This document shows positions 45,661 to 62,204 of a stretch of 64,000 bases of DNA, in pieces. The position numbers and the translations under genes were made by a program. The DNA comes from Ceratobasidium sp. AG-K (Eukaryota > Basidiomycota > Agaricomycetes > Cantharellales > Ceratobasidiaceae). Numbering within the stretch: the stretch's first letter is position 1; every line of letters begins with the position of its first letter. The stretch covers positions 1,798,001 to 1,862,000 of the forward strand of contig JAWNGF010000004.1 of the NCBI GenBank assembly GCA_037039685.1, read 5' to 3'. Below the pieces are notes generated by a model that was not told where the DNA came from, searched no databases, and was given only the letters and a program-made list of their open reading frames with translations.

Positions 45661-48600
45661 ATGGCGCCCGGATCGAAACGCTGGTTGCCTGACGCGGTTC
45701 GCCGCTGTCTTCCCTTCGGAAGGCAGCGTACAAGGTCCGATCCGTCTCCTACGTCCTCGCCCATACACGATAACCCGCCGCCGACCGGGGTAACATCCAC
45801 TCAGGCGGTCTCCCCGAGCATCAGGCTGCTGCTAGTAACGGCGCGCATTCCTCAAGCAACGCAAGTTGAGACGAGTCCTGCGATGAGTGCGCTAAAGACG
45901 GTGCTTGGAGGACTAAGAGATAGTCTGGCCGAGCTGCCTCCGTTGCAGATGGCCATCGGAGGATTGCTAGAGTGTATCATCCGGTCAGAGGTATGTAGGC
46001 ATGTCTCGATTTCAACTCGCCTGTGAGTCTGATGGTCGTACGATACAGGTCGAGGCTCAAAATCGTCAGGCATACCAAGAACTAGCCTCAGATTTGGCGA
46101 ACCTGGCCACGTTACTCCAAAAGCATGCGGTTGAGCTGAAGCCACACGACCGATCATACTCGGTTGCCAACGTCGCGCAGTACGTGCAGCGGTTTCGTTC
46201 TGGAATATCAGTTGATTGGTGATGGCTGTAGGGCAATTGCTGAACAAACAGAATTGATCAAAACACAACAGAAGCAGTCACAAATTAGCCGGTTGACCAC
46301 GGCAAGGGACGACGGAGAAGTGGTGCTGAGGTGCTACCGCAGGATCGGGGCGCTGTTTCAGCAGTTGCAGGTGCGCGAAATAATACCGCTATGGCTGGAA
46401 ACTCATCCGGATCTCAGACCGATATACTATTGAGCTTGCGGGACGAATCAAAGGAGCGAGATATGGTATGTACAATGTTATGTTTCGGGCAGCGGTGTGA
46501 TAGCATGTCGTGTGCGCAGGGTGTTATCATCAAGGACCTCTCACCAGCTCGTGACGCCTACCACAACGCGGCACTCCCCACCTCGGCCACTAAGCGAGTC
46601 GGATGTACCCAAGGTACCCGCGTGAAGCTCCTGGAGATGGCTCAAGACTGGATACAGGGGGGAAATGCGGCCAAAATTTTCTGGCTGAACGGTATGGCTG
46701 GCACCGGCAAGACCACGATCGCCTACACTCTCTGCGAGATGCTGATGAAGGATAAACTGCTCGGGGCTAGCTTCTTCTGCTCGCGCAACTCGTCGCCCGA
46801 CTGCAAAGACGTCAATCGGATTGTACCGACGATCGCGTATCAACTAGGCCAATATTCGAACCTTTACCGACAGGAGTTATTCAAGGCGCTGAAGAGCTAC
46901 TCGGACGTCTCAAAGCGGGATATCGGCGCTCAGTTCCTGCATCTCATCTCGGAGCCCTTTCAGAAGATCAGCCAGGCGATGCCGAAGGACGCTATAGTCG
47001 TGATTGATGCGCTGGACGAGTGCGTCGACGAGGCCGGGGCAAAAGATGTGCTCAACATGCTAATCCGGCATGCGGCCAACCTTCCCATCAAGTTCTTTGT
47101 TGCCAGTCGGCCTGAACCCACCATATCCGAAAGCATAGCCGCTCGCGATGGCGCTACGCGCTCGATTCTCCGACTCCATGACATCGAGGAATCACTCGTG
47201 CAGGCAGACATCAAGCTCTACCTAACTGAAGCGCTGGCATGCATCAACGTATCGCCCTCCGAGATCGACCAGCTTGCCACCCGGGCCGGTAACCTGTTCA
47301 TCTTTGCCGCGACCACCGTGCGCTACATACTGCCAGACCGAGGGGCTGTGAACCGAGGACAACGATTGCAGACGGTACTGAAACTACAGCCAAGCCAGAA
47401 GCATAGAAGTTATGACGATATCGACAACCTGTATGCGGCGATCCTAACCAATGCCTTGGACGAGAAGATCTATGAGGAAGAAGAGATTGATGCAAGGCAG
47501 AAAGTGCTGAAGACTGTGATCTGTGCGGGGGAGCCATTGACGATACCGGCGCTTGCCGAGATTCTGCGTATGTCGGGTGAAGAAGATGTGCGGATTGCGA
47601 TACAACCTCTACAATCCCTGCTTTATGTCTCAGCAATCACCAGCGCAGTATCCTCTCTCCACGCATCGTTTCCCGACTTTTTGCTCGCCAAGCAACGTGC
47701 TGGACAATTCTACTGTGACGACATCCTTCAAAGCTCTTACCTGGCCGAGCGTTGCTTCGGGTTGATGGGCCGGTCACTGAAGTTCAACATATGTGGGCTA
47801 GAATCATCATACGTGTTTGACAGGGATGTGCCGAACCTTGAATGTCGGGTGGACGAGGCGATCTCGACCGGACTTTTCTACTCGTGCAGATACTGGTGCG
47901 ACCACCTCACCAAAAGTCTATCCTCACCCGCGTTGCTTTCGCTCCTACACACGTTCTTGCGGCAGCATCTGCTGTTCTGGATGGAAGTGCTGAACCTGAA
48001 AAGGCGGATCGGCCACGGCGAAGTTATGCTCAGTCAGGTACTGACCTGGCTCCCGGTGAGTATCTCACCCCCGCGCCGTAGTCATCTACTCACAAAGCTC
48101 AGATGGAAGCTGAATGGGCTGAGCTCCGAGACTTCACGTACGATGCACGCAATTTTCTCACGGTGTTTGCCGGCAATCCCGGCTCGCTATCCACCCCACA
48201 TATCTACGTATCTATGTTGCCTTTCACATCCAGGGAAAGCCGTATGCGGACAGCCTACTGGAAGCGAACGCGAGGTCTGATACAGGTTGAAGGTCCAGCG
48301 ATCGAGGCCAGGGGTAACTCTGCGCTTGCAACCTGGGACGTTGGGAGCGCGGTTCATAGCATTGCTCAATCGAGCGACGGCAGGCGTGTCGTCTCAGGCT
48401 CTGGCAACGGTGAAGTGAGTGTGTGGGATGTGTCAAGTGGCGCTCGTGTCCTGGGGCCCTCGGAGGGTCATGAGAAGTCAACCGAATTGGAGCTTCGGGG
48501 CTTTTTTGATCCAGTCATGTCGGTGGCGTTCTCTCCAGATAACTCTCGCATTGCATCTGGCTCATGGGACAATACCATTCGTGTTTGGGACGCGGGCAAC

Positions 48601-60500: not shown

Positions 60501-62204
60501 GCCTCAGGTGGCCACACCATCCGGATGTGGGACGCGCACACGGGCGATGCAGTGAGTGATGCATACGAAGGACATCAGGATGCAGTGTGGTCGGTGGCAT
60601 TTTCACCTGACGGAAAGCATCTCGCCTCTGGCTCAGCCGACAGTACGATCCGAGTTTGGAACTGGCAAACCGGCGTGGTAGCTCTGGGACCAATGACAGG
60701 GCATGCCTGGTCGGTGAACTGCATTGCATATTCCTTGGACGGACTGCGCCTGGCGTCAGGCTCGTCGGATCGCACGGTTCAAGTGTGGGACATGACGAGT
60801 GGCACGCTTTTGGCCGGCCCATTGAAGGGTCATACCGATACTGTCAGGTCCGTTTCGTTTTCACCCAACGGCAGCCAAATTGTTTCTGGTTCGTCTGATT
60901 GTACCATTCGTGTGTGGGACGTTCAGAGCGGGAATCTGCTTGCTGGACCTTTCAAGGGACATAGCGGGTGGATCAACGCGGTCCTCTTCACTACGGACGG
61001 CACACGCATCCTGTCTGGGTCTGACGACTCCACGATCTGCGTATGGGACGCGCACCAAGGGATAACTGATCAAACCGAGTTACTGGGACATTCCGACGTC
61101 ATCTTCTCTGTTGCCATATCGCCCGACGGCACACGCCTCGCATCTGGTTCAGGCGACTCCACAGTCTGCATGTGGGACACGCACAACGGCACACTCGTCG
61201 CTGGTCCGTTCAAAGGTCACACCCAAGGAGTTAGCTCGGTGGCCTTCTCGCCAGATGGGGCACGCATTGTATCAGGCTCCTACGATATCACCCTGCGCAC
61301 TTGGGACATTTTCACCGGTGCCTTGCTTGCTGGTCCGTTCGAGGGACACACCAAATCGGTCAGTTCGGTTGCCTTTTCACCCGATGGCGGCAAAATTGCA
61401 TCCAGTTCCTATGACAGAACCATCCGATTGTGGGACTCGCATACCGGCAAATCGCTGGCCGAGCCGTTCGAGGGCCACACCCGCGAGCTCACGTCCATCG
61501 CGTATTCGCCCGACGGCGCTCGCATCGTCTCTGGTTCCTGCGACTACACGGTCCGCATGTGGGACGCCAATGATGGCACCGCACTCTGGACCTCGGACGG
61601 TCAAAGAGGCACTGTCGACTGTGTGGCGTTTTCACCCGATGGGACGTGCGTAGTGTCTGGCTCGTACGACAAGAGCATCCTGGTGTTGGACGCGCGTAGC
61701 GGTGCGGTGCTGCATGGTCCGCTCGTGGGTCATACCAGTTATGTCTACTCCGTCGCATTCTCGCCCGATGGAACGCGCGTCATCTCCGGCTCTCGGGATA
61801 AAACGGTGCGTGTTTGGGACGTGGAAAGCGGCACGACGGTGGTTGGTCCACTCAATGGTCACACCAACGAGGTTCACTCAGTTGCGTTTTCTCCCGATGG
61901 CGCGCGTATCATCTCTAGCTCACGGGACCGCACAATTCGGTTGTGGGATGTCGCAGCCGCCACTCGACCCGGCGCTGTATCTTTCGACGGATGGTTCATT
62001 GACGACGATGGCTGGCTGACCAACTCGCAGTCGCAGCGGCTGTTCTGGTTGCCGTCCGACCAGCGCAATGGGTTCGGGCTCCTGACTCCCTCCAATCCTC
62101 TTGTCATCAATGTCCGCAGCACCACCCGCGTTGACAACACCACGCGACTGGGAGAGCGGTGGCACGAATGCCACCATGCGTCATTGGAATCTGTTTCGTC
62201 CTAA
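57512..62204 (+). pseudogene. NACHT-WD40 NLR (NWD), tandem copy 3, frameshifted
   Basis: Same gene plan as copies 1 and 2. The start ATG is 57512 (MASESKRSLPDLVCNDLSLK). Walker A GMAGTGKTT starts at 58544, and Walker B VVIDALDECADEAG is near 58850. The NACHT frame ends at TGA (59843-59845) right after FWMEVLT, because one A is missing at about 59839 relative to copy 1 (GTGCTGACCTG here, GTGCTGAACCTG in copy 1). The following RRIGHGEVMLSQALAWLP is intact in the +1-shifted frame, as are the intron and the whole WD40 part (14 repeats, 59949-62204). Everything but this single base looks intact. It may be a recent pseudogene, two separate proteins (NACHT-only and WD40-only), or a sequencing/assembly error. 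Confidence 0.8.

What the first reader, a model, noticed from the sequence alone, without database searches (positions are those of the whole stretch)
45661..62204. Three-gene direct tandem array of NACHT-WD40 NLRs
Three complete-length NWD genes repeat with a period of about 5.9 kb, including intron positions and intergenic blocks. Each encodes a helical N-domain, NACHT and 14 WD40 repeats. In Podospora the NWD family (HET-E/HET-D/HNWD) controls non-self recognition. A local array with shared promoters is a natural place to generate new recognition specificities. Family assignment is established knowledge; the immune role in this organism is inference.
Basis: partly seen in the sequence, partly recalled or inferred. 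Interest (0 to 1): 0.75.

Follow-up and report, generated by a model that had tools for sequence, protein, structure and literature searches.

The report
Tandem fungal immune-receptor genes, hypervariable sensors
Three neighbouring copies of a fungal intracellular immune-type receptor gene (two intact, one with a broken reading frame) carry sensor surfaces that differ almost completely at a few fixed positions, as expected of genes under pressure to recognise new targets.

Summary
The tandem array is real: three same-strand NACHT-WD40 (STAND/NLR) genes, start-to-start 5,938 and 5,913 bp, with the same six-exon structure and 14 WD40 repeats. Two corrections: copy 3 has a frame disruption near 59.84 kb, so there are two intact genes plus one disrupted; and the promoters are not all shared. 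It is one of 12 same-strand groups among 89 scored family hits in this fungal genome.

(2) The genes are mosaics: copy 3's 5' flank and exons 1-3 are 91-92% identical to a paralog on another contig, the rest about 80%. Most likely non-self or pathogen receptors that trigger cell death through the helical N-domain; ligand and killing are untested. New variant of a known kind.

The parts
45661..50373 (+). Copy 1 (c1), NACHT-WD40 receptor gene, 6 exons, 1,484 aa, intact. Exons 45661-45990, 46049-46179, 46232-46370, 46418-46465, 46520-48055, 48103-50373 (stop included).
   Evidence: Splice model and translation; Pfam WD40 E 4.8e-137
51599..56304 (+). Copy 2 (c2), same gene structure, 1,478 aa, intact. 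Exons 51599-51931, 51989-52119, 52172-52310, 52370-52417, 52472-54004, 54052-56304.
   Evidence: NPHP3_N E 2.5e-29
57512..62204 (+). Copy 3 (c3), same gene structure; frame disrupted in exon 5 (stop at codon 708), WD40 exon open. Exons 57512-57844, 57902-58032, 58085-58223, 58271-58318, 58373-59901, 59949-62204.
59828..59860 (+). Stretch that holds the frame disruption of copy 3 (one-base indel relative to copies 1 and 2)
   Evidence: Alignment; translation
51599..52417 (+). N-terminal module of copy 2 (exons 1-4: leader plus helical domain); equivalents 45661-46465 and 57512-58318
   Evidence: models of homologs
52589..53059 (+). Nucleotide-binding (NPHP3_N/NACHT) domain of copy 2, residues 257-413
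   Evidence: coordinates by arithmetic from the exon table; motifs
54280..56088 (+). 14 WD40 repeats of copy 2; positions 7, 9, 25 and 27 of the repeats hypervariable
   Evidence: approximate coordinates by arithmetic from the repeat anchors
50374..51598 (+). Intergenic block 1, homologous to intergenic block 2 (65% over 1,075 bp)
56305..57511 (+). Intergenic block 2; from about 56650 onward 91% identical to the flank of paralog C2p
62318..63069 (+). Remnant of the same intergenic block downstream of copy 3 (matches blocks 1 and 2 in pieces, 67-73%)
56650..58206 (+). Exchange tract: copy 3 versus dispersed paralog C2p (G000:C2, about 5,322.9-5,328.5 kb, minus strand), 5' flank plus most of exons 1-3
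   Evidence: Sliding identity; permutation p=0.0005
58340..58787 (+). Exchange tract copy 2 / copy 3 (coordinates in copy 3), end of the N-module and start of NACHT
   Evidence: p=0.0005
59386..60023 (+). Exchange tract copy 1 / copy 3 (coordinates in copy 3)
   Evidence: p=0.0005
60365..60791 (+). Place (in copy 3 coordinates) of the exchange tract between copies 1 and 2, early WD40 repeats
   Evidence: p=0.0005

Best explanation
The locus is a tandemly duplicated set of STAND-type intracellular receptors: helical N-terminal domain, NACHT switch, and 14 WD40 repeats (inferred to make two seven-bladed propellers) as sensor. Proposed working: the top faces of the propellers bind a variable protein (a non-self allele of a fungal protein, or a pathogen product); binding releases the NACHT, the receptor oligomerises as Apaf-1 does, and the N-terminal helical domain, by its probable kinship with the MLKL/HeLo-type four-helix superfamily, starts death of that cell compartment. 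Shown by sequence: gene structure, domains, intact nucleotide-binding motifs, extreme variation at the four known recognition positions of the repeats, and mosaic gene history. Inferred: ligand binding, oligomerisation, cell death. The repertoire seems to be renewed in three ways: tandem duplication; exchange of gene segments between array members and with paralogs elsewhere (including 5' flank plus N-domain); and codon-by-codon selection at the recognition positions in a fixed order of repeats.
For: Positions 7, 9, 25, 27 were taken beforehand from PMC1805685 (passages read). In 5 genes they differ in 0.79-0.90 of comparisons, against 0.21 for the other 39 positions pooled; pooled dN/dS 1.19 against 0.30; random sets of four positions p=5e-5, the floor of the test. 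The recent duplicates C11p/C13p differ by 19 nucleotide changes in 727 N+NACHT codons but by 118 in 746 WD-exon codons; at the four positions 41.3 nonsynonymous versus 4.7 synonymous (pN/pS 2.21) against 0.34 in the rest of the repeats; nonsynonymous:synonymous contrast p=1.9e-5. Same direction in 17 of 18 protein pairs from Rhizoctonia, Ceratobasidium and Agrocybe, significant in 14. Mosaic tracts p=0.0005 for c1-c2, c1-c3, c2-c3 and c3-C2p. WD40 exons of C2t2/C13t share pS 0.126 while their NACHT exons are at 0.61. Best PDB match of a homolog's model is full-length Apaf-1, E 3.8e-16. The N-domain profile reaches fungal proteins bearing MLKL_N, PF22215.
Against: No ligand, expression or phenotype data. 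Copy 3 is frame-disrupted. The MLKL link of the N-domain is weak by sequence: PDB MLKL chains at E 0.27-0.32, behind designed coiled coils; no Pfam match over cut-off in the N-domain itself; of 8 profile hits scanned, the 5 closest ones carry no MLKL_N match and only the 3 distant ones do; the fold comparison is inconclusive. Taken alone, the excess of nonsynonymous over synonymous change at the four positions is borderline per pair (one-sided p 0.035, 0.051, 0.033, 0.059; pairs overlap), and among the array copies and C2p it is near 1 (pN/pS 0.83, 1.21, 1.13, 0.88). One of the 18 protein pairs goes the other way. In one search four of ten pairs gave no significant tract (c1-C2p, c1-C11p, c2-C11p, C2p-C11p) and two were weak (p 0.02, 0.03); p values are not corrected for ten pairs. 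WD40 proteins that are not receptors were not tested as a control for the four positions.
Confidence: 0.7

Rival explanations
1. Allorecognition (heterokaryon incompatibility) locus proper: the array members recognise alleles of a fungal protein, as HET-E and HET-D recognise HET-C.
For: Same recognition positions as HET-D/HET-E; two near-identical R. solani homologs (P0009/P0010) differ at 12 of 718 N+NACHT residues but at 23 of 53 recognition residues, as multi-allelic het genes would.
Against: Diversifying selection is equally expected for pathogen sensing; no HET domain found; 89 scored hits out of 390 candidates far exceed the nine incompatibility loci that an abstract seen in the listing gives for P. 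anserina.
Confidence: 0.3
2. Defence receptors against viruses, bacteria or other fungi, with no allorecognition role; tandem copies are separate specificities.
For: Large, diverse, mosaic repertoire; array members share only 7-13 of 56 recognition residues.
Against: No challenge data; cannot be told from the first rival by sequence.
Confidence: 0.4
3. A decaying, relaxed gene cluster: variation at propeller loops reflects lack of constraint, copy 3 is the first to die.
For: Copy 3 frame disruption; among array copies pN/pS at the four positions is near 1 (0.83, 1.21, 1.13).
Against: The rest of the repeats and NACHT are under constraint (pN/pS 0.41-0.42 and 0.23-0.28); P-loop and Walker B intact; recent paralog pairs reach pN/pS 2.2-5.4 at the four positions (each pair borderline alone); apart from position 6 the remaining 38 repeat positions stay at amino-acid difference 0.00-0.49.
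Confidence: 0.1
4. Sensor-helper pair or trio: array members act together rather than as independent receptors.
For: Tight, same-strand linkage with conserved spacing.
Against: Head-to-tail, all with the same architecture; no division into sensor and helper types seen; the copy-3 break would disable one partner.
Confidence: 0.05

Closest known systems
Podospora anserina NWD/HNWD family (het-e, het-d, het-r)
   Same: NACHT plus WD40 repeats; reactive alleles predicted to form a double propeller (PMC12222747, passages read); hypervariable codons at repeat positions 7, 9, 25, 27 (PMC1805685, passages read; here)
   Different: No HET domain found; repeats 42-47% alike within a gene rather than about 85%; fixed order of repeats, 14 of 14 best matches at the same position in six gene pairs; N-terminal helical domain instead
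Apaf-1 (animal apoptosome STAND protein)
   Same: Nucleotide switch followed by WD40 propellers; best structural match of a homolog's model, 3shf/3sfz
   Different: Low overall TM-score (0.35), so domain placement differs or is badly predicted; the model is of a partial homolog (933 aa); Apaf-1 has a CARD and an NB-ARC (recalled)
Basidiomycete MLKL-like (BaMLKL) NLRs of Wojciechowski et al. (PMC9815663, passages read)
   Same: Basidiomycete NLR with N-terminal helical bundle; profile reaches fungal MLKL_N proteins
   Different: Sequence match to MLKL itself is weak; fold comparison inconclusive
NLR clusters of Sordariales (PMC12258605, passages read)
   Same: Two or more NLRs within 40 kb; that study reports 272 clusters, 47 of three to five genes, 16 made of paralogous copies
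   Different: Basidiomycete-like relatives; strict head-to-tail paralogs with duplicated intergenic blocks and exchange tracts

Membership tests
Fungal NLR / STAND protein (NACHT-WD40 class) | NACHT-type nucleotide-binding domain with P-loop and Walker B | tested here: met
   NPHP3_N E 2.5e-29 in copy 2, over cut-off; PF05729 24.1 bits, under its cut-off 26.7; motifs in c1, c2, c3
Fungal NLR / STAND protein (NACHT-WD40 class) | C-terminal superstructure-forming repeats (WD40) | tested here: met
   PF00400 E 4.8e-137 in copy 1; 14 repeats
Fungal NLR / STAND protein (NACHT-WD40 class) | Nucleotide-dependent oligomerisation and signalling | not testable with these tools
   needs protein work
Podospora NWD/HNWD (HET-E/HET-D) family | N-terminal HET domain (HNWD members) | tested here: not met
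   No HET match in the N-terminal 254-255 residues of c1 and c2 at E up to 5
Podospora NWD/HNWD (HET-E/HET-D) family | High internal conservation of WD40 repeats (about 85%) | tested here: not met
   Mean within-gene amino-acid identity 0.42-0.47, maximum 0.65, in 8 genes
Podospora NWD/HNWD (HET-E/HET-D) family | Concerted exchange of repeats between positions | tested here: not met
   Best match at the same repeat position 14 of 14 in each of the six gene pairs compared
Podospora NWD/HNWD (HET-E/HET-D) family | Diversifying selection at repeat positions 7, 9, 25, 27 | tested here: met
   excess over the rest of the repeats is clear, pN above pS taken alone is borderline per pair
Podospora NWD/HNWD (HET-E/HET-D) family | Repeat-number polymorphism between strains; role in incompatibility | not testable with these tools
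   one genome only; repeat number is 14 in the seven genes printed
BaMLKL / MLKL-HeLo four-helix executioner | Sequence profile match to MLKL_N | tested here: inconclusive
   Members below cut-off, 2 of 12 match at best E 0.045; the profile finds proteins with PF22215, 3 rows of the 120 listed of 199, confirmed by hmmscan, while 5 closer hits scanned show none
BaMLKL / MLKL-HeLo four-helix executioner | Four-helix bundle fold | tested here: inconclusive
Fungal NLR cluster (Sordariales definition) | Two or more NLRs less than 40 kb apart with fewer than eight other genes between | tested here: met
   Three in 16.5 kb with 1.2 kb between genes

The most novel reading that the evidence does not exclude
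Basidiomycete NACHT-WD40 receptors run a modular germline repertoire distinct from the Podospora one: a fixed 14-blade scaffold carrying about 56 hypervariable recognition residues that diversify codon by codon, while promoter-plus-effector, NACHT and WD40 segments are traded between array and dispersed loci on other chromosomes, so that sensors, switches and outputs (and their regulation) are recombined as separate modules.
Probability: 0.4. Interest if true: 0.7.

Novelty: new variant of a known kind. Interest (0 to 1): 0.48.

Why it matters
Fungal WD40 recognition genes have been understood mainly through Podospora, where nearly identical WD40 repeats are reshuffled. If another fungus keeps its repeats in fixed order yet varies the same four residues per repeat, the recognition surface is the conserved principle and repeat shuffling is only one way to vary it. 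Because the repeats here can be aligned position by position, the recognition residues of many receptors could be read from ordinary genomes, and the question 'which residue binds what' becomes testable. The shared 5' flank and N-domain with a paralog on another contig suggests that output and expression can be re-paired with a sensor.

Tried and rejected
Assembly artefact or haplotype duplication of the array: rejected, copies are 18-21% divergent and a neighbouring gene occurs once. Codon bias as the cause of lower synonymous divergence in WD40 exons: GC3 is similar (0.63-0.67 in NACHT, 0.61-0.65 in WD40) in c1, c2, c3 and C2p, the only genes measured. Long conversion tracts as the carrier of the hypervariable codons: synonymous differences next to them are not raised (3 of 82 near, 22 of 446 elsewhere, C11p/C13p; 3 of 82 against 34 of 446, C2t2/C13t; small counts). 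Whole-codon replacement: the number of bases changed per codon is only slightly more clustered than independent changes would give. C11p and C13p as plain alleles: homology stops 1.3 kb upstream of the gene, next to a high-copy repeat on contig 11; not settled. A single-sequence search with the N-domain found nothing at E 0.001; the profile did. Foldseek with the N-domain model gave no match at E 0.001, and no HET-S/HeLo entry stood in the 50 rows listed. Further family copies in the rest of the window (E 1e-3) or in the next 9 kb (over 60 bits): none found.

One search used 5 of the 8 genes in the alignment; C13p, C2t2 and C13t were left out. One search printed 15 pairs among 6 of 8 genes. 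The 18 pairs are those of at least 80% identity and 1,250 aligned residues among the 120 proteins listed of 2,792, and they share members. No WD40 protein outside receptors was used as a control. The family count rests on the 89 hits scored of 390 candidates, and its random expectation ignores contig ends. Searches of the own genome give lower bounds by the tool's own statement.
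Full report
Setting. The window lies in a 53.6 Mb, 17-contig genome without a name, at C4:1798001-1862000. The 120 public relatives listed for copy 2's N+NACHT part are 38-49% identical; most are from Rhizoctonia solani and Ceratobasidium, the first by E-value and several others from Agrocybe pediades, with single ones from Flammula and Amanita. No listed protein is closer than 49%. The organism is therefore inferred to be an agaricomycete fungus; its name was not sought further.

The observation. Self-BLAST of the window finds three direct copies. 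Aligning them gave five introns of 47-59 bp with GT-AG ends, at the same places in all three. The same boundaries projected from copy 2 onto six paralogs elsewhere in the genome fall on GT and AG in each, with exon lengths 312-333/131/136-139/48/1,530-1,533 before the last exon. Copy 1 encodes 1,484 aa and copy 2 1,478 aa without a stop. Copy 3 has a one-base frame disruption near 59.84 kb and a stop at codon 708, after the NACHT and adjoining helical region and before the WD40 exon. No other stop was found in its exons as modelled, so it is a recent loss or a sequence error; whether alternative splicing bypasses it was not testable. The intergenic regions are homologous (65% over 1,075 bp), and a related block follows copy 3, as expected from unequal crossing-over of a gene-plus-spacer unit; upstream of copy 1 only 81 bp match intergenic block 1. 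No further copy was found in the rest of the window or in the next 9 kb.

How unusual is the array. Searching the genome with copy 2's NACHT region gave 89 scored hits out of 390 candidates, E 1e-20 or better, so the family may be larger. Of these 89, 26 lie in 12 same-strand groups with start-to-start spacing up to 15 kb, two of them triplets; random placement puts about 4 of 89 (maximum 12 in 500 trials) within that distance on any strand. This array is the tighter of the two triplets, one group of many. Clusters of NLRs are known in ascomycetes: 272 clusters in 26 Sordariales genomes, 16 of paralogous copies (PMC12258605, passages read).

The closest paralogs are named here: C2p (contig 2, gene about 5,322.9-5,327.6 kb, minus strand, open for 1,471 aa), C11p and C13p (contigs 11 and 13, 1,473 aa each), C2t1, C2t2 and C13t (contigs 2 and 13). 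C2p is about as close to the array members as they are to each other.

Mosaic history. Identity of copy 3 and C2p is 0.90-0.93 in all ten 150-bp windows from 56,662 to 58,161, that is the 5' flank plus most of exons 1-3, and 0.71-0.89 in the windows from there to the end of the gene. In the N-domain dS is 0.14; in NACHT 0.59 and in WD40 0.44. A fragment test with 2,000 permutations gives p=0.0005 (its floor) for this tract (56650-58206) and for c2-c3 (58340-58787), c1-c3 (59386-60023) and c1-c2 (60365-60791); c3-C11p p=0.02 and c2-C2p p=0.03 were weaker, and the other four of the ten pairs were not significant; the values are not corrected for ten pairs. The 5' flank of copy 3 has one close relative in the genome, C2p at 91%, and one distant one, the block downstream of copy 3 at 67%. 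C2p's NACHT/WD part has no closer relative than the array (81-82%). Flank and N-domain have therefore been exchanged with, or copied to, another contig separately from the rest; the direction cannot be told. Among the relatives the WD40 exon behaves separately too: C2t2 and C13t have pS 0.61 in NACHT but 0.126 in WD40. GC3 does not differ between these domains in c1, c2, c3 and C2p; it was not measured in C2t2 and C13t.

Recognition surface. The 14 repeats of about 43 residues are colinear in the seven genes printed; each repeat's best match in another gene is the repeat at the same position, 14 of 14 in the six gene pairs compared. In Podospora the repeats are about 85% alike and reshuffled, and codons 7, 9, 25 and 27 of the repeat, on the top face of the propeller, are under diversifying selection (PMC1805685, passages read; PMC4986451, section 13 read). 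I tested those four positions as fixed in advance. Among c1, c2, c3, C2p and C11p their amino-acid difference is 0.90, 0.86, 0.83 and 0.79; they are ranks 1, 2, 3 and 5 of 43 (rank 4 is position 6, 0.81, which may be one of the seven positions used in PMC12222747 if its numbering is shifted by five: my inference from passages read). Pooled dN/dS is 1.19 against 0.30 for the other positions; a random set of four reaches the observed mean with p=5e-5, the floor of 20,000 draws. The remaining 38 positions range from 0.00 to 0.49. Array members share only 7-13 of 56 of these residues.

The recent pair C11p/C13p is the clearest case: 10 nucleotide changes in 216 N-domain codons, 9 in 511 NACHT codons, 118 in 746 WD-exon codons; at the four positions 41.3 nonsynonymous to 4.7 synonymous, in the rest of the repeats 29 to 30. 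Contrast of nonsynonymous:synonymous between these classes: p=1.9e-5; for C2t2/C13t 2.1e-5, C2t1/C13t 9e-4, C2t1/C2t2 8e-4. The test of pN above pS at the four positions alone is borderline (p 0.059, 0.033, 0.035, 0.051 in the same order), and these pairs overlap. Among the array copies and C2p the ratio at the four positions is near 1 (0.83, 1.21, 1.13, 0.88), with both kinds of change near saturation. The synonymous rate in the WD40 repeats of C11p/C13p is also higher than in NACHT (0.07 against 0.01), so WD40 segments are older or partly imported. In 18 public protein pairs of 80-95% identity the four positions differ more than the rest of the repeats in 17, significantly in 14; P0096/P0106 goes the other way. 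Synonymous differences next to the hypervariable codons are not raised, so the codons seem to change individually. WD40 proteins outside receptors were not tested.

Novelty. Nothing on a basidiomycete NLR array with these features, nor on selection at these positions in repeats without high internal conservation, appeared in the rows listed by the eight literature searches, which cover only open-licence PubMed Central papers, nor in the passages I read of eight papers. The array by itself is a new member of a known kind; the combination of a fixed repeat register, hypervariable four-position code and modular exchange makes it a variant.

Verdict. A real tandem set of fungal NLRs, with one copy broken. 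Recognition-type diversification is supported by data; ligand, cell death and the choice between allorecognition and pathogen defence remain inference.

Noticed in passing
G000 contigs C5, C4, C1, C7 (positions): Many NACHT hits come in pairs with identical scores at constant offsets in one contig (for example C5 205076/724257 and 322900/842201, both about 519 kb apart; inverted pairs on C4). Possibly large near-identical segmental duplications, or uncollapsed haplotypes joined in the assembly.
   Followed up: no
L038:7800-9500 (C11:186300-188000): Upstream of paralog C11p lies a repeat with at least 41 matches in the genome, 15 of them (itself included) 99-100% identical: probably a recently active mobile element next to an NLR duplicate.
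   Followed up: partly
L038:2-1015 and L039:3-1094: A second WD40 stretch lies downstream of C11p and of C13p at the edge of the fetched stretch, 68-69% identical to copy 2; no NACHT hit beside it was listed, so probably a partial tandem copy.
   Followed up: partly
L041 (C2:270001-279500): Paralog C2t1 is truncated: stop after 622 codons of the WD40 exon.
   Followed up: partly
G000:C4:894067-915240: A second same-strand triplet of this family on the same contig.
   Followed up: no
27341-28258 (-) and 30562-31365 (+): Two related open frames in opposite orientation with a shared start region (MHRIIDPRVGGTSLRHMNMFK...). They recall AIG1/GIMAP-like GTPase tails (from memory); no Pfam match at E 0.01.
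   Followed up: partly
17307-18539 (-), with neighbouring frames 14423-22098 (-): The frame at 17307-18539 matches HEAT repeats of the EF3/GCN1 type; the neighbouring minus-strand frames look like the same gene by eye. NAD kinase (37824-38285, -), leucine carboxyl methyltransferase (38730-39260, +) and APH-type phosphotransferase (32215-32631, +) frames lie between it and the array: ordinary genes.
   Followed up: partly
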